NCBI GenBank assembly: GCA_000309945.1
Contig: CM001633.1
Coordinates: forward strand, 133,264 to 197,263
Direction: 5' to 3'
From: Leptolyngbyaceae cyanobacterium JSC-12
GTDB lineage: Bacteria; Cyanobacteriota; Cyanobacteriia; Leptolyngbyales; Leptolyngbyaceae
DNA length: 64,000 bases
The notes below the pieces were generated by a model that searched no databases, was not told the DNA's origin, and was given only the letters and a program-made list of their open reading frames with translations. This document shows, in pieces, positions 33,400 to 43,117 of this stretch; within the stretch, counting starts at the first letter, position 1, and each line of letters opens with the position of its first letter. A program made the position numbers and the translations under genes.

Positions 33400-36300
33400 T
33401 TAGATCGGCATTGGAGAACTTGCCTTGATGATTGACTCTAACGTTTGCAGGAGTTCTTGCTCGTTATAGGGTTTGGAGAAGTAAGCAGACGCACCTAAAC
33501 TCATCGCCAGTTGCCGATGTTTTTCGCCTGTTCGTGAAGTTAACATTGCAACAGGAATTTGTTCAAACTGAGGATTAGATTTGAACTTGGCTAAAAAGCC
33601 AAACCCGTCCATACGAGGCATTTCAATGTCGCAAATCACTGCTTGTACTGGAGAACCTCGTTGCAGTTTATCGATTGCGTCCAATCCATCTTTTGCTTGC
33701 TCAACCCGGAATCCCGCTTTTTCTAGAGTTAGCGCCAAGAAGCGGCGAATGTTAATCGAGTCATCCACAATTAAGACTGTAGATTTTGCGATCGCTGAGT
33801 TGGGAGTAGCCGTGATTGGCAATAACTCCCGATTTAGCTTCAGTAGCTCTTTCGGGATATTGAATGAGGTTAAAGTTGAACTGCGTTTGGAGTCACGGTC
33901 ACAGCTAACAATCCAATCCACCAGTTCGGTGACATTAACTAATGGAACCACTCGTCCATCTGCCACAATAGCACAACCTGTAAACCCTTCTGGCATCGCT
34001 AAATTTCCTTCTGTACGACGAACGGCAACCTCCTGTTCGCCCCAAGTTCGCTCAACCTGAATCGCAACTTGCTGATTTCCCTGATTGGCAATCAATATAG
34101 TTGGTGCATCAATACTGGGAGCCGTTTCAAGAGTTACAGGTTGACGGGGACAGTTAAACTGGAGCCAGCGAGATAATTCAATTCGTTTAATTGTTTGTTC
34201 TCGCCACACTAAATCTTCGCCATTTTCAAGTGAAGGAAGGGTTGTTAGTAGAAGTGTTTCTTTAATCGCATCTGTGGGAAATGCTAGCAATATGCCATTG
34301 CTTTCTGCCAACAATACGCGCACAACAGATAGGGTAAACGGAACTGATAGCGTGAACGTTGTGCCCAGCCCTGCACGAGTGTTAACACAAATTTCTCCTC
34401 GTATTTGCCGCAAGTTATCACGAACGACATCTAAACCAACGCCGCGACCTGACAAATCAGTTACGCGATCGCTGGTGCTAAAACCAGGCTCAAAAATTAA
34501 GGAAAGTAAATCGGCTTCATCCGCAGTTGCCAGCAATGTTGGATCTAAGCCTATCTGCTCCGCTTTTGCTCGAATTTTATCCAGTGAAATGCCCTTGCCA
34601 TCATCGCTAATCGTGATCAGAGTGCGATTTCCATGATGCGTTGCCTGAATTTCGATCGTACCTTCCTCTGGCTTACCCTGCGATCGCCGCGTCTCTGGAG
34701 TTTCAATTCCATGATCAAACGCATTGCGCAGAAGGTGCATCAGTGGGTCACTCAATGCTTCTAGAATTGTCCGTTCAATCAGCGTACTTCCACCTTTAAT
34801 TATCAGTTTGACTTGTTTCCCATACTGCAAACTCCATTCTCTTAAGGCCCGTGGAAACCGATTGACAATATCTGATAAGGGGCGCATCCGAATTTGAGTC
34901 AAATTGGCTTGCAGTTGCTTTCCTGTTTTATTCAATTCACGAACAGTTTGTTCTGCATCATCTAAACTTAAATCAATGTCTGCACTCACCTCCTGAATTT
35001 GAACGATTGTCTCCATCACTTGCTGCGAAAGCAAGTGTAACTCGTTGTATTGGTCTAACTCTAAAATGTCAAATTCCCTGGCAAAGGAGGATGAAATAGG
35101 GGAGACAGAAGCTGAAAATGCTTCTGGGTTGGAGGTCGCGTTGAACGTGCTATCGTTATTAGTTGGAGGCAGTAAAGGAACTCTAGAGATACCAATAGTG
35201 CGAGGAATAATGCGATCGTAAACGGTTTGTAACTGAGTGTTAGATTGCTCAAGCAGCCGTACCCGTTGCATCAGGAGATGAGCTAAATTTCGTAAACGTT
35301 TGAGATATAAGCTTAACCCATTTCGTTCGATAGTTAGTTCACTGAGAAAATCATTGAATTGATTGAGTTGGCGAACAGAAACACGAACTGTTGCATTTTG
35401 ATCAGCTTCTAAGGATGTAGCTGTTACATCTGGATTCGCTTCAAATCTGAAATTAGCTGATTGTGACTTTGGTATTTTATCAACTTGGAATGAGTCAGTT
35501 TCATATTCTTGAGTGATGACTGAATCAAAAATTGGTTGATCATCTGGAGCAATTGAACTGATGTCAGATTCAGTAACCTCATCTGTTTCAGTAATTAAGA
35601 TTTCAGTTGAATGAATTTCAGGTTTAGTGACCTCAGTTGAAGCTACTTTGGCGATTGCAAATTCATCTGAAGTGGTTGTTGGCGTAGGCACTGAGAACAA
35701 GTCCTCTTCAAGGAGGCTGGGTAGCAGGTCTATCTGTCCATTAAGAATAAGAGTTTGCGATCGCCGCCATGCTTTTAGTGCCGCTTGGGCAATAGAGGGA
35801 ATGAGTTCGGGAGTTGCCTGGGTAATCTGCTCAATTGCCACACAAAGCTGAGTGAATGGATGTAACTGCAACATCTTACCCAAACCACCCATTTCTTGCG
35901 CCAGGATAATAAGTTCTTCTTGCAAGCAGGGCTGGTTAGGATTTGCCAAAACCGCTTCTAATCGCTGTAAACAATCCTCTACTTCAGTTTCAAACAGCAG
36001 GGCAATCACATCTTGTCCGCTATCGGTTGAGAGAACTGAGACGGCGTCCTCATCAACTGGATCTCCCAGGCGATCATGCAATTGTTGAAAAATGGGTTCA
36101 ACCTGATACTCTGTCCAATCGGGATTGAGTGGCTGGTCTTGCTGATGCTGGTAAATGATTGTGCGTAGACAATCAATGCCACTCAGCAATAAATTTTCTA
36201 ATGCTGCATCAATCTGGATGGATTGATGTTGAGTTTTCAAGACCTTGAATGAATCTTCCAGGCGATGAGCGAGTTGACTGAGTAAATGGAACCCCATTAA

Positions 36301-36462
36301 GCCAGCCCCACCCTTGATTGAGTGGGCAGATCGGAGTGCAGCATTGATTTTTTGAATATCAATGCGCCCACCAGCAAGCCCCATCACAGCGGCATCCAGT
36401 GCATCCAGATAGTCCTGCGCCTCATCGAGAAACTGACGCCGAATTTCGAGTTCCTTTGACAT
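33400..36462 (-). CDS. pixL: CheA-type hybrid histidine kinase, PixL/PilL-like
   Basis: A 1020-residue kinase of Pil/Pix chemotaxis systems. The N-terminal Hpt domain has the phospho-acceptor in SAHSIKGGAG (H47). A second Hpt-like region (about 151-240) has lost its His: LAQEMGGLGKML stands where HxLKG is expected. After a long variable linker comes the dimerisation helix, then the ATPase with the N box LLRNAFDHG (N580), G1 ISDDGKGI (D620) and G2 SGRGVGLDVV. A CheW-like domain follows (about 715-860), then a receiver with D945 in ICDIEMP. It receives signals from the adjacent PixJ-like receptor through the CheW protein and phosphorylates the PixG/PixH receivers. It is the last gene of the five-gene operon, 31 bp after the receptor. 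Confidence 0.9.
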   Translation of the reverse strand: MSKELEIRRQFLDEAQDYLDALDAAVMGLAGGRIDIQKINAALRSAHSIKGGAGLMGFHLLSQLAHRLEDSFKVLKTQHQSIQIDAALENLLLSGIDCLRTIIYQHQQDQPLNPDWTEYQVEPIFQQLHDRLGDPVDEDAVSVLSTDSGQDVIALLFETEVEDCLQRLEAVLANPNQPCLQEELIILAQEMGGLGKMLQLHPFTQLCVAIEQITQATPELIPSIAQAALKAWRRSQTLILNGQIDLLPSLLEEDLFSVPTPTTTSDEFAIAKVASTEVTKPEIHSTEILITETDEVTESDISSIAPDDQPIFDSVITQEYETDSFQVDKIPKSQSANFRFEANPDVTATSLEADQNATVRVSVRQLNQFNDFLSELTIERNGLSLYLKRLRNLAHLLMQRVRLLEQSNTQLQTVYDRIIPRTIGISRVPLLPPTNNDSTFNATSNPEAFSASVSPISSSFAREFDILELDQYNELHLLSQQVMETIVQIQEVSADIDLSLDDAEQTVRELNKTGKQLQANLTQIRMRPLSDIVNRFPRALREWSLQYGKQVKLIIKGGSTLIERTILEALSDPLMHLLRNAFDHGIETPETRRSQGKPEEGTIEIQATHHGNRTLITISDDGKGISLDKIRAKAEQIGLDPTLLATADEADLLSLIFEPGFSTSDRVTDLSGRGVGLDVVRDNLRQIRGEICVNTRAGLGTTFTLSVPFTLSVVRVLLAESNGILLAFPTDAIKETLLLTTLPSLENGEDLVWREQTIKRIELSRWLQFNCPRQPVTLETAPSIDAPTILIANQGNQQVAIQVERTWGEQEVAVRRTEGNLAMPEGFTGCAIVADGRVVPLVNVTELVDWIVSCDRDSKRSSTLTSFNIPKELLKLNRELLPITATPNSAIAKSTVLIVDDSINIRRFLALTLEKAGFRVEQAKDGLDAIDKLQRGSPVQAVICDIEMPRMDGFGFLAKFKSNPQFEQIPVAMLTSRTGEKHRQLAMSLGASAYFSKPYNEQELLQTLESIIKASSPMPI

Positions 36463-36493: not shown

Positions 36494-39400
36494 TCAATTT
36501 ACTTTGAAGATTTCAACTGAGGTTTGAAGTTCCTTGGCAACTTGAACCGTTTGCCGCAAAGAATCAGATACTGTGCGAGAAGATGCAGAAGTTTGTCCAG
36601 CCGTTCTGGCAACTTTTTCCATCAATCCTGCGATCGCCTGTGAGGTCTCCACTTGAGCAGCCGCAGATTGAGAAATAGATCGTGCTAATTCATCAATTTG
36701 GTGAGAAACTTGGAGAATTTTTTCGAGGCTCTGTTTTGCATTCTTAACTAGATGCGTCCCTTCTACAACCTGAGTTGTACCTTTCTCCATTGCCGTTACA
36801 ACTTCAGTAGTCTCTCGCTGAATTGCATCCACAATTTGCTCAATTTCCTGCGTCGCTACTGCTGATCGGGCCGCTAGTTCTCCCACCTCTTCTGCCACTA
36901 CTGCAAACCCTTGCCCCTCTTCACCCGCTCGTGCTGCCTCAATTCCAGCATTGATTGCCAATAAGTTCGTTTGCATTGCAATTTGGTTAATCAACGATAC
37001 TACTTTAGAAATTTGTTGCGACGATTCCCCTAGTCGTTTGACTTTCTTAGCTGTTTCACCAATGGTTTCTCGTAAGTGGAGGATGTTTTGTACAGTAGAA
37101 TCCATTGCTGCCCCACCCATTTCAGCCGTACTGGAAGCCGTATGAGCCACCTCTGCTGCCTGCTGGGCGCTATCTGCGGCTGCCAGAATTAACTGCTTCA
37201 TGTGCTCAACCGATTTCAGTGTTTGCATTGTTTCGTCTGCCTGGCGCATGGCTTCTTCAGCAAGTTGCTGCATGGCTCCCTCATTTTCGCCCAAGGAGGT
37301 GCCTACCTTCTTCGCAGACTGTTTTACCTGCAATACGATATAGCGCAAATTCTCCACAATTGAGTTGAAGAAGTCAGCTACGGTGCCAATTTCTCCGGCT
37401 GAAACATCTGCTCGAACAGTCAGATCGCCGCTGGCAGCCCCTTCCACATCTTTCAGTAATTCCAAAAGCTGCTCTTGCAATGTTTCTCTTTGGCGGCGTT
37501 GCTCTTGCGAAATGGTTTCTGCCTGTAATCGAGCCTGCTCTTTCTCTGCAAATAGATTGGCTTGTTCTAGGGCAAATCCAAGCTGAATTGCAGTCTGCCG
37601 TAAAAAGCTAATTTCTCCATCCTGCCACTCCCGCGGAGCGTTGCACTGGTGAGCACACAACAACCCCAGTAAGTTACCTGCAATCAGGATGGGTGCAACA
37701 ATATTCGCTTTAACTTCAAATGGTTCTAGCTGGTTCAGGTAACAGGGATCGAGTCCGGCTTTCGCAATATCAGTGAGGGCATGGACCCTCCCCCGGCGGT
37801 ACCGTTCAACATACTCTTCCGCAAAGCAGGGATCGGCAATGTTAGCTCCCAACGCCACGGGAAACCCTCGCCCAACCGATTCAGCCACGATCGTACCCTG
37901 CCAGGTTTTGTCGAATAGATAAACTAAGGCGCGATCGCACTTCAGCGCTTCTCGAACCCCCTGCACTGCTACACTAAACACTTGCTGGCGATCAAGCACT
38001 TCTCGCATTCGGAAGGTGATATCATTCAGCAAATTGGCATATCGGGCAGATTCTTCCTGCTGTTTCAGGAGAGTCGCTTGTTCCAATGCATAACTTGTTT
38101 GCACTGCTAATTGGTTGAACAAATCAATCTCAGAGGCAAGCCAGCGACGTGGGCCGGAACACACATGAGCACATAGTAAGCCAATCAGTTGATTGCGCTT
38201 AAAGATGGGTGCTGCCATGCTAGCTCGAATCTGGAACCCATCCAGGATCGGATGACAATGTTCAACAAAGTCAGCTACATGAACATCTTCAACTGTGGTA
38301 ACATGACCGATGCGATATGTTTCAATAAAGCCTTCTCGCATTGGCTCACTAATGTGTTCACCCAAAATTTCTTGCCAATTTCCAGTGATAGATTCAGCAA
38401 TGACAGATCCACTCCAATCAGAATTAAATTGATAAATCACTGCCCGATCTAAGTTGAGTACTTGGCGTAGTTCTCGAACTGTTGTATATAGTACGTCATC
38501 CCATCTTAAAGATTGGCGAATTCGAAGGGTAATTTCATTTAACTGTTGTGCACGTTTTGCTGTTTCCTGCTGTTGCTTGAGTAGCTTAGCCTGGTCAAGT
38601 GCAAATCCAAGTTGAATCGCAATTTGTCGGAAGAAATTAATGTCTGATTCTTGCCAAACTCGTGGTCCAGAGCACTGATGGGCAACGAGTAAGCCCTTCA
38701 ATTCTTCACCAACCAGGATAGGAGCAACCATATTGGCTTTTACTTCAAATGGCTCTAGTTGCTCCATATAGCATGGATCTAGCCCTGCTTCATAAATGTT
38801 GGATAGCACCTGAACCCGTCCACGTCGATACTTTTCAACATAGGATGCGGCAAAGCAGGGATCAGCGATTTGAGCACCCAGTGCAGGTGTCCAGGGGCTT
38901 TCAACGGATTCTGCAACAACAGAGCCTTGCCAGTTCTGATCAAATAAATAAACAACGGTGCGATCGCACTTCAGCACATCCCGCGTTTCTTCTAGAGTGG
39001 TTGTGTAGATGTGCTCTGGCTCTAACACTTCTCGCATCCGGAAGGTAATCTTGTTGAGTTGCCGTGCCCGCTCTGCTTCTTCAGCTTTTTCGGTTGCCAG
39101 GGTGGTTCCGGTGAGTGCTACACCAACCTGAGCCGCCAATTCTCGCAGAAATGTAATCTCATCCTGTGTCCAGATGCGGGTGGTTGAGCATTGGTGTGCC
39201 ACGAGCAAGCCTAATAGACGACCGCCCGATACCACTGGCACAACCAAGTTTGCCTTCACCTGCAAACGCTCTAGCAATTGCAAATGTGCTGCTGAATAAT
39301 TCGTTGCCAGCACGTCGCTAGTCGGCACATAACGCCCTTTGCGATACTCTTCCAGGATAGGGCGTGGAATACAAGCATCTGTGATTTTATCGTTGAGCGC

Positions 39401-41086
39401 TCTAGGAAAATTGCCCTCGACGGCTTCTGCAACAATCTTGCCGCTCCAGTTAGGTTCAAAGCAGTAAATCACCACTCGATCAACTGCCATTCGCTGTTTC
39501 GCCAGTTGCACAGTCAAGTCAAAGACAGTCTGGGTGTCGCCTCTGCCTGCTGCCTGCGCCAGCTCTGCATAAAACTGAGACTGTTTGATGACTTCAGTCT
39601 GGTGTTGCATTTGGGTTTTAACCGAAGTGATGAATTCATTAAAGCTGCGAGTGAGTCGCCGCAGTTCACCAGACCCATTGAGCGCGATTTGCACATTTAA
39701 GTTGCCTGCTGCTGCGTTATCGTAGGCGTGGCTTAATTCAGTCAGCACGGTTGCCCAGCGCCGCGATACTCGCGATATGCCATACGCCGCAATGGCAGCT
39801 AAGGTGAATACGACTGCCGCGATCGCCCATGCCCAGTTGGGATTGAACCGAACTTCCGACAAATCTACAGCGGAAACTGTGACCCAGTTACTACCTGGAA
39901 TCGTTGCCAGAGTATAAAGCTTGCCATTACGGGAAAACGTGGTAAGTAATCCTCGATTTTCACCGCTTCCGCTGCCATTCTCCTGATAATTGACCCACTT
40001 AATTGGGGATTGCGGGTCTAATATTTCTTTAGGTGAGGGTGGTTCAGTCAATAATTTCGTTGCGTCTTGAACAATGTCACTGCCTCCTAACATCTGAGCA
40101 GTGCGAGTAAATCCTTCAGCGGTGAGGGTTCCTACTGGCTTGAGTTGATTGTCTTCCAGTGCCAGAATCTGCACTTGCTGAGAGCTAGCCAGTCGAGTCA
40201 GCGGAATCACGCTCAAGGCACGACCGATTTCATTGACTGTAAACCGCCCCCGCACCGTCCCCAAAAATTTTGCGGTGTTGGGGTCTGAAATTGCCTGTGC
40301 CACATCTACCCCTGCTACTGCACCAGCTTTGTCTATCACTAAGCGTGTCAGTTCTCCATCCTGCTTGGTTTGCTTCCACCAGATTTTATCTCGCTGAATT
40401 AGTTCCGGTGTGGAATGAGTTGCAGCAATATAAACACCATTTCTGTCAGTTAATGACAGTTCCATAAACCCAGAGGTTTGAGCAATACGCCGGAGATTAC
40501 TGGTCATCTGTGTCGCTTGAGAGCGCAAAAGGCTCCAGTCTTTAGGTTTTACGTCTTTGTTTGATGCTCGTGCCAACCTCATTTGCTCCAGTTCTTCACT
40601 CATCCGCTGCGAAAATTCCACAATCGTTGGGTCGGGTGCCAACCTTTGAGGAACTCGACGGGCAGTGGTGAGGCGATCGCGGGTAGATTGGTTAACAGCA
40701 ATGACCTGGTCTTGCAAGTCTTGTTCTACCTGCTTCGTGTCGTGAGCTAGCGCCAGCCCATACGCTGCTAAGGCTGCAGTTCCGGCAGGAGCCAACACCC
40801 ACGGCAAAATGTTAAACATTAACTCGCGCCGCAATGATGACGGTGGATTTAAGGAATAGAGTGGAATCGCTTCAGAAGGCAAACCTGTTGATTTTTCAGG
40901 ACGATTTGGCATATCCACAAACTCATGCTGGTAGGGATGGCGCTCAGTTGTGGCATGACCTGCGGTAGGAGCAGCACCATTTGAGCGATCGCTCAATTCA
41001 GCATCCAATAGTGACGAGTCTGTAAAAATCAATTCAGGCGGAGTCTGAGCTTCGTTAAGATTCACGGCATCTGAACGTTCCATCAT
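36494..41086 (-). CDS. pixJ: Phototaxis receptor-type MCP with four cyanobacteriochrome-like GAF domains
   Basis: A 1530-residue membrane chemoreceptor. Order: cytoplasmic lead of about 90 residues; TM1 (about 93-113); periplasmic Cache-like domain (about 115-415); TM2 (about 418-437); HAMP (438-492); GAF1 (about 516-660); GAF2 (690-833); GAF3 (862-1003); GAF4 (1035-1177); second HAMP (about 1205-1255); MCP signalling domain with hairpin [20 protein letters not shown] (1381-1400). GAF2 has DPCF (C744) and C772; GAF4 has DPCF (C1087) and C1115; each pair is 28 apart, as in DXCF cyanobacteriochromes such as TePixJ. The residue after the second Cys is Tyr instead of the usual His. GAF1 has DACIP (C572) but Ala600-His601 at the canonical site. 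GAF3 has no DXCF Cys but HCH at 943-945. Blue/green light sensing is inferred. Confidence 0.85.
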
Positions 41087-41121: not shown

Positions 41122-41634
41122 CTAGGGAGACGGATGCAGGATAGAGGAATGCAGAATAGCTTCAGCACTAAGAACTAACAGCACGTCCTGTTCGTGCACA
41201 GCATATCCTTGTAGGTGGCTTTGCAGCAGGGGTGAGAATTCACTAGGAGGGGGTTGTATGCCATCAGAGGGCATCCAAAAAAATCCACTAATTTGTTGCA
41301 CCGCCAACGCTAGGGGGACTTCTCCCACGCGTGTAATGACCAAGTTGTAATGCTGATGATTTGATCCCAGGTTGGCAATGCCCAGGAGATAGGCAACATC
41401 TACTACCCACAATACATGGCTACGACGATTCATTAAACCCAAAACGCAGGCAGGCATATTTGGCATTGGCGTCAGGCGATCAACTGGCAGGATATGAACT
41501 TCTTGCACCTGCTGCATTGCCAGTACAGCATTCACTCCATCAGCCAATTGAAAGCGCAAAAAGGGATCTCCAGGAGGACGTTCAGAGCGATTAGGCGCGA
41601 TCGCGCTTGTTGTTGGTAAAGTCAAGATTGACAT
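41122..41634 (-). CDS. pixI: CheW-like coupling protein (PixI-like)
   Basis: A 170-residue CheW-domain protein from [20 protein letters not shown] through [20 protein letters not shown] to the C-terminal [16 protein letters not shown]. The conserved NRRSxVLWVVD segment is the CheW signature in pilus-type systems. It couples the PixJ-like receptor to the PixL kinase. It lies 20 bp after the PixH receiver and 35 bp before the receptor gene in one operon. Confidence 0.9.
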
Positions 41635-41654: not shown

Positions 41655-42032
41655 TTAATTCACAACAGCTTGAACAGCACGCAATAGTTGCTCACGTGTA
41701 AATGGTTTCGTCAAGTAAAAGTCGGCACCTTGCTTCATTCCCCATAATCGATCAATTTCTTGAGATTTGGAGGTGCAGATGATAATGGGAGTCTTTTCAG
41801 TTACTGGATGCCTTTTCAGGCTACGGCATAGCTCAAAACCACTCAGCCCAGGCATTACAACATCTGTAATTACTGCATCGGGTTGATGCTCAATTGCTTG
41901 ATTAAGCGCTGCATTTGCGTTGACTACCCCAATGACGCTATAGCCACTTTCCTGCAAATAATGACGGATTAATTCCATTTCAGACGGAGTATCATCAACA
42001 ATCAAAATTGTTTGAGTTAGCGTTGTCGCCAT
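41655..42032 (-). CDS. pixH: Single-domain response regulator (PixH/PilH-like)
   Basis: A 125-residue CheY-like receiver. The acidic pair is VDD at residues 12-14, the phospho-acceptor D57 in VITDVVMPGLSG, the Thr/Ser switch in IIICTSKSQ and the Lys in YLTKPFTREQ. It has no output domain. In Pix/Pil systems this second receiver tunes pilus retraction or acts as a phosphate sink. It lies 17 bp downstream of the PatA-like regulator. Confidence 0.92.
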   Translation of the reverse strand: MATTLTQTILIVDDTPSEMELIRHYLQESGYSVIGVVNANAALNQAIEHQPDAVITDVVMPGLSGFELCRSLKRHPVTEKTPIIICTSKSQEIDRLWGMKQGADFYLTKPFTREQLLRAVQAVVN

Positions 42033-42049: not shown

Positions 42050-43117
42050 TCACGTTAGATGCTTAAACACCATTTTCATTAACTCTGGGCGAGTAAAGGG
42101 CTTTGTTAAATAACCAGATGCACCGACCAGCTTTGCTTTCGCTCGATCAATAAACCCCGTATTACCCGTCACCATTACAATCGGCGTTGTTTTGAAATTA
42201 GGATGTCTTCGTAACATTGAGCAAAGCTCGTACCCATCCAGATTTGGCATCCCTACATCGAGCAAAATCAAGTCTGGTTTGTAACGAATAATTTGAATCA
42301 ATGCTTTGAGTGGATCATTAATCATGACGATTGAAAGATTACTGTCTTCCAGAAATGAATTAATTGCCTGGAGAACAGTGGGACTATCGTCAATGCAAGC
42401 GATGGTATAATTAGCTTTGAGAGGATTGGATTTTGAGGCGGGGATTGATTCTTCCGTTCCAATCGTTGGGTCGGAACTCGAATCATAAGTTGCTTCAATT
42501 GACTCGCGTAAGGGAGCTTCTTGAAACGAAAAGGTAGAAGACCGCGCTACCGATTGTCGTCGTAACTGTGCTTGACAATGCTCTACCAGGGGACGCAATT
42601 CCAGTTGGCACAAGGGAGAAAAAACCGCGATCGCCTGAGATTCAATTAACTCGTGACTGCCTTCTGTAACTCGTAACAGCGATTCCAGTACTTCTTTTGC
42701 CAGTTCACCTACTAGATGAGTAACTTGGTTCTCATCCAAGTAATGCTGCTCAACTAACCACCGAATCGCTGAATAATCGGGCGGGATGAGGGACTGGGCT
42801 TCCTTATTTCGCTCAAACAGCGCTCGCGCCTGTGCTCGAACTGCACTCACCAAGCCTGGAACTTGCATACTCAGTTGATTCAGGTGGCGATCAAGCCGTT
42901 CAAAAGGATTAATAGAATTTGAGGCAAACGACACGTTGCCTTTTTCGAGAAAAATAAACCAAATCACTGCTCCACTAGTAATTCGCAAGCATCCGCTGAT
43001 TTGCTGGCTCGTAACCTGAGCAAACAGACTAAGAGGATGTAAGCGTTGAGGCATCTGAGAAGAACCGTAACCAATCATTGACACAGTATTCATAAGACTT
43101 TGGTTGCAAAGGGTCAT
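42050..43117 (-). CDS. pixG: PatA-family response regulator (PixG-like)
   Basis: A 355-residue protein with an N-terminal DUF4388/PATAN domain (about residues 22-180, LHPLSLFAQVTSQQISGCLR and VIWFIFLEKGNVSFASNS) and a C-terminal receiver with D287 in ILLDVGMPNLDG. PATAN-CheY proteins in cyanobacterial phototaxis systems interact with the pilus motor PilB/PilC to set motility direction. It is the first gene of the pixGHIJL operon. Other in-frame ATGs (MNTVSM) leave the start uncertain by about eight codons. Confidence 0.9.
   Translation of the reverse strand: MTLCNQSLMNTVSMIGYGSSQMPQRLHPLSLFAQVTSQQISGCLRITSGAVIWFIFLEKGNVSFASNSINPFERLDRHLNQLSMQVPGLVSAVRAQARALFERNKEAQSLIPPDYSAIRWLVEQHYLDENQVTHLVGELAKEVLESLLRVTEGSHELIESQAIAVFSPLCQLELRPLVEHCQAQLRRQSVARSSTFSFQEAPLRESIEATYDSSSDPTIGTEESIPASKSNPLKANYTIACIDDSPTVLQAINSFLEDSNLSIVMINDPLKALIQIIRYKPDLILLDVGMPNLDGYELCSMLRRHPNFKTTPIVMVTGNTGFIDRAKAKLVGASGYLTKPFTRPELMKMVFKHLT

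What the first reader, a model, noticed from the sequence alone, without database searches (positions are those of the whole stretch)
36494..41086. Chemoreceptor with four cyanobacteriochrome-like GAF domains, two of dual-cysteine DXCF type
GAF2 (C744/C772) and GAF4 (C1087/C1115) each have a DPCF cysteine and a second cysteine exactly 28 residues later, the spacing in DXCF cyanobacteriochromes such as TePixJ (C494/C522). The residue after the second Cys is Tyr in both, instead of the common His. GAF1 has a DXCIP-like motif (DACIP, C572) but Ala at the canonical place (A600-H601). GAF3 keeps neither pattern but has HCH at 943-945. So one receptor may hold two covalent dual-Cys photoreceptors plus two degenerate ones, a possible blue/green phototaxis array. 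Whether the chromophore actually binds is inference.
Basis: partly seen in the sequence, partly recalled or inferred. Interest (0 to 1): 0.8.

Follow-up and report, generated by a model that had tools for sequence, protein, structure and literature searches.

The report
Four-GAF PixJ-type phototaxis light receptor
This is a light receptor, probably for steering movement, in a cyanobacterium: two of its four sensor domains look like ordinary blue/green sensors, the first looks like a rarer one-cysteine type rather than a broken one, and the third is the odd one out.

Summary
The gene (36494-41086, minus strand, 1530 aa) is the receptor of a complete pixG-H-I-J-L-like operon, a PixJ-type cyanobacteriochrome chemoreceptor. 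GAF2 and GAF4 are ordinary DXCF domains: gapless hits to TePixJ, both cysteines, and the class's usual 28-residue spacing (214 of 224 dual-Cys GAFs). The Tyr after the canonical cysteine is common (53 of 224) and recurrent. The main correction is GAF1: it is not evidently degenerate. It belongs to a widespread lineage (DXCI[P/S/G], no canonical Cys) that keeps the second cysteine in 56 of 57 domains counted (a class picked partly by that cysteine), is about as constrained as GAF2, and fits the motif definition of the published DXCIP class, reported to bind bilin through that cysteine alone. GAF3 is the divergent one: Glu for Asp and a Cys-His slid by one residue, seen in this genus only. The full GAF order was found in 2 of 58 genomes, both of this genus. 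PcyA and heme oxygenase genes are present. Bilin binding, colours and phototaxis itself are inference. A new member of a known kind.

The parts
36494..41086 (-). pixJ-like gene: 1530-aa methyl-accepting receptor (TM/HAMP/GAF1-GAF4/MCP)
39620..39763 (-). HAMP domain (about residues 442-489); a hydrophobic stretch precedes it at about 416-441
   Evidence: Pfam PF00672 2e-09; hydropathy
39098..39577 (-). GAF1 (about residues 504-663): DACIP, second Cys C572 (39371-39373) present, canonical place A600-H601
   Evidence: AF2 model m220df12fcdb3
38573..39070 (-). GAF2 (about residues 673-838): DXCF type, C744 (38855-38857) and C772-Y773 (C772 at 38771-38773)
   Evidence: 3vv4 TePixJ 147.7 bits, gapless
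38060..38554 (-). GAF3 (about residues 845-1009): single Cys-His (C944 at 38255-38257) slid by one residue; Glu for the Asp of the Asp-motif; no second Cys
37547..38035 (-). GAF4 (about residues 1018-1180): DXCF type, C1087 (37826-37828) and C1115-Y1116 (C1115 at 37742-37744)
   Evidence: 3vv4 TePixJ 157.9 bits, gapless
36605..37153 (-). MCP signalling domain (about residues 1312-1494)
   Evidence: PF00015 3.6e-40
42050..43117 (-). pixG-like: DUF4388 plus receiver domain, 355 aa
   Evidence: 85% identical neighbour in L025
41655..42032 (-). pixH-like: single receiver domain, 125 aa
   Evidence: 90% identical in L025
41122..41634 (-). pixI-like: CheW, 170 aa
   Evidence: 81% identical in L025
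33400..36462 (-). pixL-like: CheA with Hpt, ATPase, CheW and receiver domains, 1020 aa
   Evidence: 76% identical in L025

Best explanation
A PixJ-type cyanobacteriochrome chemoreceptor for phototaxis, made with its own CheA/CheW/CheY set. Light is read by GAF2 and GAF4, each holding a phycocyanobilin-derived bilin (probably isomerised to phycoviolobilin) on C772/C1115, with C744/C1087 adding reversibly at C10, i.e. blue/green switching. GAF1 more likely than not also binds a bilin, through C572 only, as reported for DXCIP cyanobacteriochromes (green dark state, slightly blue-shifted photoproduct). GAF3 is a diverged single-Cys GAF with a slid Cys-His; it may bind a bilin in an altered pose or serve as a linker. 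The photostates are summed along the chain of GAFs into the MCP tip, which sets PixL autophosphorylation and PixG/PixH control of type IV pili. Shown here: the domains, the cysteines and their homologous positions, lineage membership, the operon, bilin-synthesis genes and T2SSE-family ATPase genes. Inferred: bilin attachment, colours, signal route and response. The confidence below is for the core (PixJ-type receptor, GAF2 and GAF4 dual-Cys photoreceptors); for bilin on GAF1 alone it is about 0.55.
For: Gapless homology of GAF2/GAF4 to TePixJ, with D492, C494, F495, C522, Q526 and N535 kept. pixG-H-I-J-L order with gaps of 17-35 bases (domains), kept at 76-90% identity in the genus mate L025. 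GAF1 within a lineage branch found without the motif columns (23 rows, one change, SH-aLRT 93, quick tree); Cys kept in 56 of 57; dN/dS 0.025 against 0.024 for GAF2. AF2 models of both tandems (mean pLDDT 87.3 and 85.4) match TePixJ structures with TMt 0.83-0.93. PcyA 341.9 bits, cut-off 206, the only Fe_bilin_red hit; two heme oxygenases; five T2SSE-family ATPases. DXCIP chemistry from passages of PMC5578081 and PMC6628166; pix pathway from passages of PMC5812497.
Against: No bilin, spectrum or phenotype was measured. That this DXCI lineage is the published DXCIP class rests on motif and missing Cys; no published DXCIP sequence could be put in the tree. In 3 of 5 genomes of the genus taken to be Synechocystis the PixJ1-like receptor has a first GAF with neither Cys, and in Synechocystis PixJ1 only the second GAF is reported to bind (PMC5812497), so first GAFs can be non-binders. 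TePixJ H498, W499 and Q526 are Pro, Ile and Leu in GAF1. The AF2 models are weak around the second cysteine: block pLDDT 69 (C572), 65 (C744), 59 (C1087). dS is near saturation (0.87-1.70), so dN/dS is rough. Of the 38 named loci with a DXCI receptor only 7 showed matches to both pixI and pixL in the stretch fetched (many stretches are short or end early). The first matches of the tandem models by E-value are a phytochrome GAF-PHY pair and a dual sensor histidine kinase, not TePixJ.
Confidence: 0.8

Rival explanations
1. Only GAF2 and GAF4 are photoreceptors; GAF1 is a structural, non-binding GAF (as the first GAF of Synechocystis PixJ1 is reported to be) whose Cys is kept for another reason, and GAF3 is decaying. 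This differs from the best explanation only in GAF1 and GAF3.
For: First GAFs in 3 of 5 genomes of the presumed Synechocystis genus lack both Cys; only the second GAF of PixJ1 is reported to bind. GAF1 lacks TePixJ's H498/W499/Q526 residues. GAF3 has the highest dN/dS of the four GAFs, 0.100, and a poor binding helix in the model.
Against: Besides the Cys that helped define the class, Asp (55 of 56) and the His at 523 (55 of 56) are kept in the DXCI domains, 51 distinct sequences. With the same profile the Cys-less first GAFs score 85 bits and the two DXCI first GAFs score 168 and 171. One Prochloron record holds four DXCI GAFs in a row in one MCP.
Confidence: 0.4
2. The receptor is not for phototaxis but is a chemoreceptor for another signal, with GAFs that bind no bilin.
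For: GAF domains serve many ligands (general knowledge); the genome has 70 GAF matches.
Against: Cyanobacteriochrome-specific cysteines and Asp at homologous places; best solved relatives by sequence are cyanobacteriochrome GAFs; pix gene order; PcyA present.
Confidence: 0.05
3. GAF2 and GAF4 bind bilin but the Tyr after the canonical Cys gives them a photocycle other than blue/green (for example a teal or orange product, or altered dark reversion).
For: The His at this place shifts during photoconversion in TePixJ (PMC6955287, passages); DXCF products are reported from teal to orange (PMC6628166, passage).
Against: Cys-Tyr occurs in 53 of 224 dual-Cys GAFs and needs 10 changes on a 98-row tree, so it is widely tolerated. 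The passages seen (search, passages) gave no spectrum of a Cys-Tyr DXCF GAF either way.
Confidence: 0.3

Closest known systems
TePixJ (Thermosynechococcus, PDB 3vv4/4fof/4glq; genome copy L104)
   Same: Both cysteines, DPCF, 28-residue spacing, MCP output, gapless GAF alignment
   Different: TePixJ carries one cyanobacteriochrome GAF by our profile, this has four; His after the canonical Cys in TePixJ, Tyr here; W499 is Tyr here
Synechocystis PixJ1 (TaxD1) and its tax1/pix operon
   Same: Gene set pixG-H-I-J-L, MCP (PMC5812497, passages; domains here); second GAF DXCF in the presumed genus
   Different: Two GAFs; in 3 of 5 genomes of the presumed Synechocystis genus the first GAF has no Cys at either place, here GAF1 keeps the second Cys. 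PixJ1 itself was not identified by name
Nostoc punctiforme PtxD (NpF2164)
   Same: Many cyanobacteriochrome GAFs in one MCP with Che genes beside it (PMC5812497, passage)
   Different: Seven GAFs, at least six reported to bind bilin; its sequence was not compared here
DXCIP cyanobacteriochromes (Fushimi et al. 2016, cited in PMC5578081 and PMC6628166)
   Same: GAF1 motif DACIP, canonical Cys missing, second Cys kept
   Different: Members of that paper were not available for alignment; the lineage found here also uses DXCIS and DXCIG
G007 receptor L012 (same family as the window genome)
   Same: DXCI first GAF, single-Cys GAF, two DXCF Cys-Tyr GAFs, MCP
   Different: Order DXCI / single-Cys / DXCF / DXCF; its single-Cys GAF has an ordinary Cys-His and Asp

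Membership tests
DXCF cyanobacteriochrome (GAF2, GAF4) | Asp-X-Cys-Phe motif aligned with TePixJ D492-F495 | tested here: met
DXCF cyanobacteriochrome (GAF2, GAF4) | Canonical Cys aligned with TePixJ C522, on the binding helix | tested here: met
   second residue of a predicted helix in both
DXCF cyanobacteriochrome (GAF2, GAF4) | Places with TePixJ among dual-Cys GAFs when motif columns are left out | tested here: met
   (98 rows, quick method): both lie with TePixJ in a branch of 31 rows, all dual-Cys, SH-aLRT 86 (not starred); 10 further dual-Cys rows lie elsewhere
DXCF cyanobacteriochrome (GAF2, GAF4) | Covalent bilin and reversible C10 adduct, blue/green photocycle | not testable with these tools
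   needs spectroscopy
DXCIP cyanobacteriochrome (GAF1) | DXCIP motif at the DXCF place | tested here: met
   DACIP at 570-574; exact DXCIP in 22 of 56 of the lineage, the rest mostly DXCIS/DXCIG
DXCIP cyanobacteriochrome (GAF1) | No canonical Cys | tested here: met
   Ala600; 0 of 56 of the class has it, but its absence was part of how the class was picked
DXCIP cyanobacteriochrome (GAF1) | Groups with the published DXCIP proteins | not tested
   their sequences were not to hand; Fushimi 2016 is not held
DXCIP cyanobacteriochrome (GAF1) | Bilin bound through the second Cys only | not testable with these tools
   needs zinc blot and C572A
PixJ phototaxis receptor | Cyanobacteriochrome GAFs fused to an MCP, in an operon with two receivers, CheW and CheA | tested here: met
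PixJ phototaxis receptor | Required for phototaxis | not testable with these tools
   needs a deletion strain
Single-Cys cyanobacteriochrome (GAF3) | Cys-His at the canonical place and Asp in the Asp-motif | tested here: not met
   H943 (Tyr in the genus mate) at the Cys place, C944 one later; Glu for Asp. A gapped alignment keeps Cys-His in register, so the first half depends on the alignment

The most novel reading that the evidence does not exclude
A four-sensor array in one phototaxis receptor: a one-Cys DXCI GAF, two blue/green DXCF GAFs, and a GAF3 that attaches its bilin through a Cys-His slid by one residue along the binding helix, a placement not seen in the other 399 GAF rows compared. 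The DXCI/DXCF tandem would then be the common photosensory core of a large family of cyanobacterial MCPs.
Probability: 0.15. Interest if true: 0.6.

Novelty: new member of a known kind. Interest (0 to 1): 0.36.

Why it matters
It does not open a new class, but it points to a testable and easily overlooked pattern: the first GAF of many PixJ-like receptors, readily dismissed as degenerate because it lacks the canonical cysteine, keeps one cysteine and stands directly before a DXCF-type GAF in 44 tandems collected here (32 after an 85% identity filter). If those first GAFs bind bilin, many such receptors would compare two colours, which bears on the open question (PMC5812497, passage) of how PixJ-type receptors act under so many colours of light.

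Tried and rejected
Chance or mis-frame: rejected. The ORF is open over 1530 codons and 88% identical to a genus mate over GAF1-GAF4 (92% over GAF1-GAF2).

Tyr after the canonical Cys as a special tuning feature: rejected as notable; 53 of 224 dual-Cys GAFs have it and the tree needs 10 changes.

GAF1 as decayed: rejected on lineage conservation and dN/dS. Synechocystis PixJ1 as a counter-example was examined: a genus was reached through a PcyA sequence and in 3 of its 5 genomes the first GAF of the PixJ1-like receptor has no Cys at all at the two places; the other two have two DXCF GAFs. This neither proves nor disproves binding by DXCI GAFs.

Errors of mine: the MCP query was cut out of frame; that column is discarded and was redone. 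In one search the TePixJ pocket table used a wrong residue offset and was redone. ORF residue numbers printed for L010 run one above the window's residue numbers.

Papers: Fushimi 2016 and two further papers looked up by id are not held. The term DXCIP was found in two papers (again). PMC9953108 was looked at in passages and not used. No whole paper was read; the papers cited were seen as passages.

The cysteine-to-bilin distance in the models was not measured: the tools give no coordinates and the models hold no bilin. The Foldseek tables do not say which GAF of a tandem matched TePixJ; the identities (43-44% and 48-51%) suggest GAF2 and GAF4.

Left out of counts: 9 of 374 GAF hits with a gap at both cysteine columns; 51 of 453 with under 85% of columns filled. 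The 98 tree rows are the 402 cut down by class limits and a 75% identity filter, with the window's, L025's, L012's, TePixJ and PDB rows always kept. The 402 rows include four PDB chains and some genes fetched twice (for example L011 and L025), so counts are of domains, not of independent events; distinct sequences are. For '56 of 57' I added L060 (62% to DXCI rows); two other rows whose nearest neighbour was DXCI at only 37-42%, three at 25-27%, and the three Cys-less first GAFs were not counted as lineage members (the last were not tested, and with them it would be 56 of 60).

Labels recalled, from no call: that PDB 2d1e is PcyA of Synechocystis (and hence that genus g60 is Synechocystis).
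Full report
WHAT IS THERE. Pfam gives HAMP, four GAF stretches and an MCP signalling domain. A hydrophobic stretch stands before HAMP (about residues 416-441); no N-terminal stretch passed the same cut-off. On the same strand, with gaps of 17-35 bases, lie upstream genes for a DUF4388-receiver protein (42050-43117), a single receiver (41655-42032) and CheW (41122-41634), and downstream a CheA with a receiver (33400-36462). This is the pixG-H-I-J-L set described for Synechocystis tax1 (PMC5812497, passages). The set is kept next to the receptor at 76-90% identity in the genus mate L025, Leptolyngbyaceae cyanobacterium C42_A2020_001. Of the 38 named loci with a DXCI receptor (see GAF1), 7 showed matches to both pixI and pixL in the stretch fetched, so for most of them the operon is not shown; many stretches end early.

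GAF2 AND GAF4. Their best solved relative is TePixJ (3vv4; 147.7 and 157.9 bits, gapless over 155 and 152 residues). A genome with a 100% match to that stretch (G063, L104) supplied the TePixJ gene. In TePixJ numbering, GAF2 and GAF4 keep D492, C494, F495, C522, Q526 and N535; H523 is Tyr, W499 is Tyr, H498 is Ser or Glu. Tyr at 499 is the majority form: 135 of 171 Cys-His and 38 of 53 Cys-Tyr members. The 28-residue spacing holds in 214 of 224 dual-Cys GAFs. Cys-Tyr occurs in 53 of 224; on a 98-row tree built without the motif columns it needs 10 changes, of which starred branches force 5, so it has come or gone repeatedly. Both GAFs lie with TePixJ in a branch of 31 rows, all dual-Cys (SH-aLRT 86, not starred); 10 other dual-Cys rows lie elsewhere. 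These two GAFs are therefore ordinary DXCF domains. In the AF2 models C772 and C1115 are each the second residue of the predicted binding helix, but the stretch around the second cysteine is of low confidence (block pLDDT 65 for C744, 59 for C1087). Foldseek finds TePixJ structures with target-normalised TM 0.83-0.93 for each tandem, without saying which GAF matched; by E-value the first matches are a phytochrome GAF-PHY pair and a dual sensor histidine kinase. No bilin is in the models and no distance was measured.

GAF1. The evidence leans the other way. (a) GAF1 aligns with TePixJ without gaps (109.3 bits, 145 residues); its DACIP cysteine C572 is on the DXCF cysteine and the canonical place is Ala600 followed by His601. 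(b) It belongs to a lineage: with both motif regions removed, all 23 DXCI/no-canonical-Cys rows in the tree lie on one side of one branch (SH-aLRT 93, quick method; shuffled labels need 20.9 changes on average) and GAF1 is inside it. (c) Over the 56 such domains collected (51 distinct), Asp492 is kept in 55, His523 in 55, N535 in 52, and 526 is Leu in 56. Cys and Ile are 56 of 56 by definition of the class; counted with the one close relative that has lost the motif (L060, 62% to DXCI rows), Cys is kept in 56 of 57. The search patterns lay outside the motif. (d) Against L025, dN/dS is 0.025 for GAF1, 0.024 for GAF2, 0.050 for GAF4, 0.100 for GAF3, 0.037 for the MCP part and 0.116 for the N-terminal part (dS 0.87-1.70, so rough). 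(e) 48 of 52 ORFs with such a GAF carry an MCP; the other 4 had 28-290 residues after the last GAF. In 44 cases (32 after an 85% identity filter) a DXCI GAF stands directly before a DXCF GAF. One Prochloron record (L069) has four DXCI GAFs in a row. Two papers, seen in passages, describe DXCIP cyanobacteriochromes as lacking the canonical Cys; one of them says that they attach the chromophore through the DXCIP Cys alone and have a green dark state and a slightly blue-shifted product (PMC5578081; PMC6628166). GAF1 fits that motif definition. Whether it groups with the proteins of Fushimi et al. 2016 could not be tested. Exact DXCIP is in 22 of 56; the rest mostly have Ser or Gly in place of Pro. 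In the model A600 is the second residue of the binding helix; the block with C572 has pLDDT 69.

Results against: TePixJ's H498, W499 and Q526 are Pro, Ile and Leu in GAF1. In a genus reached through a PcyA sequence that I recall to be that of Synechocystis (93% identity), 3 of 5 genomes have a PixJ1-like receptor whose first GAF has no Cys at either place and scores 85 bits; the other two have two DXCF GAFs instead. Only the second GAF of Synechocystis PixJ1 is reported to bind. So a first GAF can be a non-binder. With the same profile the DXCI first GAFs of L130 and L132 score 168 and 171. I rate binding by GAF1 at about 0.55.

GAF3. Its best solved relative is a dual sensor histidine kinase (6oap, 107.6 bits). 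It groups with single-Cys GAFs of related receptors (support 80-81). In the profile alignment H943 stands at the canonical Cys and C944 one later; the Asp-motif Asp is Glu. The genus mate has Y-C-H there, so the slide is shared by the two genomes, while the nearest outside relative, in L012, has an ordinary Cys-His. A gapped alignment keeps Cys-His in register with one insertion before and one deletion after, so the Cys-His pair itself is retained. Of the 402 rows compared, three, from two genomes of this genus, show the slide; one further hit (L002) is a misalignment. The third genome of the genus (G001, 84% complete, 840 contigs) gave only matches of 40-44% to GAF3, so the gene was not found there. 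The model's helix here is four residues long, starts three residues after C944 and lies in blocks with pLDDT 60-69, from an 11-sequence alignment. dN/dS is the highest of the four GAFs but well below 1. In insert-Cys GAFs, Asp-to-Glu variants still bound phycocyanobilin (PMC5240096, passages), so Glu alone does not rule out binding. GAF3 is best called altered, not dead.

HOW COMMON. Of 58 genomes (own included) only G000 and G002, of one genus, match over the whole GAF1-GAF4 length at E 1e-100; nine others match in part. Among the 52 DXCI ORFs, the order DXCI/DXCF/GAF3-type/DXCF appears only in L010, L011 and L025, which are these two genomes. L012 in the same family has the same kinds of GAF in another order, so the array has been rearranged within the family. 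GAFs like TePixJ's are in 143 of 388 genomes of the class at E 1e-40.

CHROMOPHORE AND OUTPUT. The genome has one Fe_bilin_red hit, which is PcyA by NCBIfam (341.9 bits, cut-off 206), two heme oxygenases and five T2SSE-family ATPases (the family includes pilus motors but also other secretion ATPases). Phycocyanobilin can therefore probably be made.

VERDICT. Observation confirmed; interpretation partly supported: right for GAF2/GAF4, not supported that GAF1 is degenerate, right that GAF3 is altered. The thing is a new member of a known kind. The most useful outcome is the lineage behind GAF1.

Noticed in passing
L069:152-4729 (Prochloron sp. MAG, ORF p151, 1526 aa): An MCP with four DXCI-type GAFs in a row and no canonical cysteine in any of them; L079 has two, and a cut third, of the same kind in a row.
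   Followed up: no
L012:1-3945 (G007): Receptor of the same family with the order DXCI / single-Cys / DXCF / DXCF, i.e. the window's domain kinds in another order.
   Followed up: partly
L057:1-3607 (record titled Parcubacteria group bacterium): A cyanobacterial-type DXCI-DXCF receptor on a contig labelled Parcubacteria; probably a binning error.
   Followed up: no
L144, L145, L146 (three of five genomes of the presumed Synechocystis genus): First GAF of the PixJ1-like receptor has no cysteine at either place.
   Followed up: partly
L053 ORF p7787, second GAF (residues 686-847): A close relative (91% outside the motif columns) of a Cys-Tyr DXCF GAF, with Ser at both cysteine places: it looks like a recent loss of both.
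   Followed up: no
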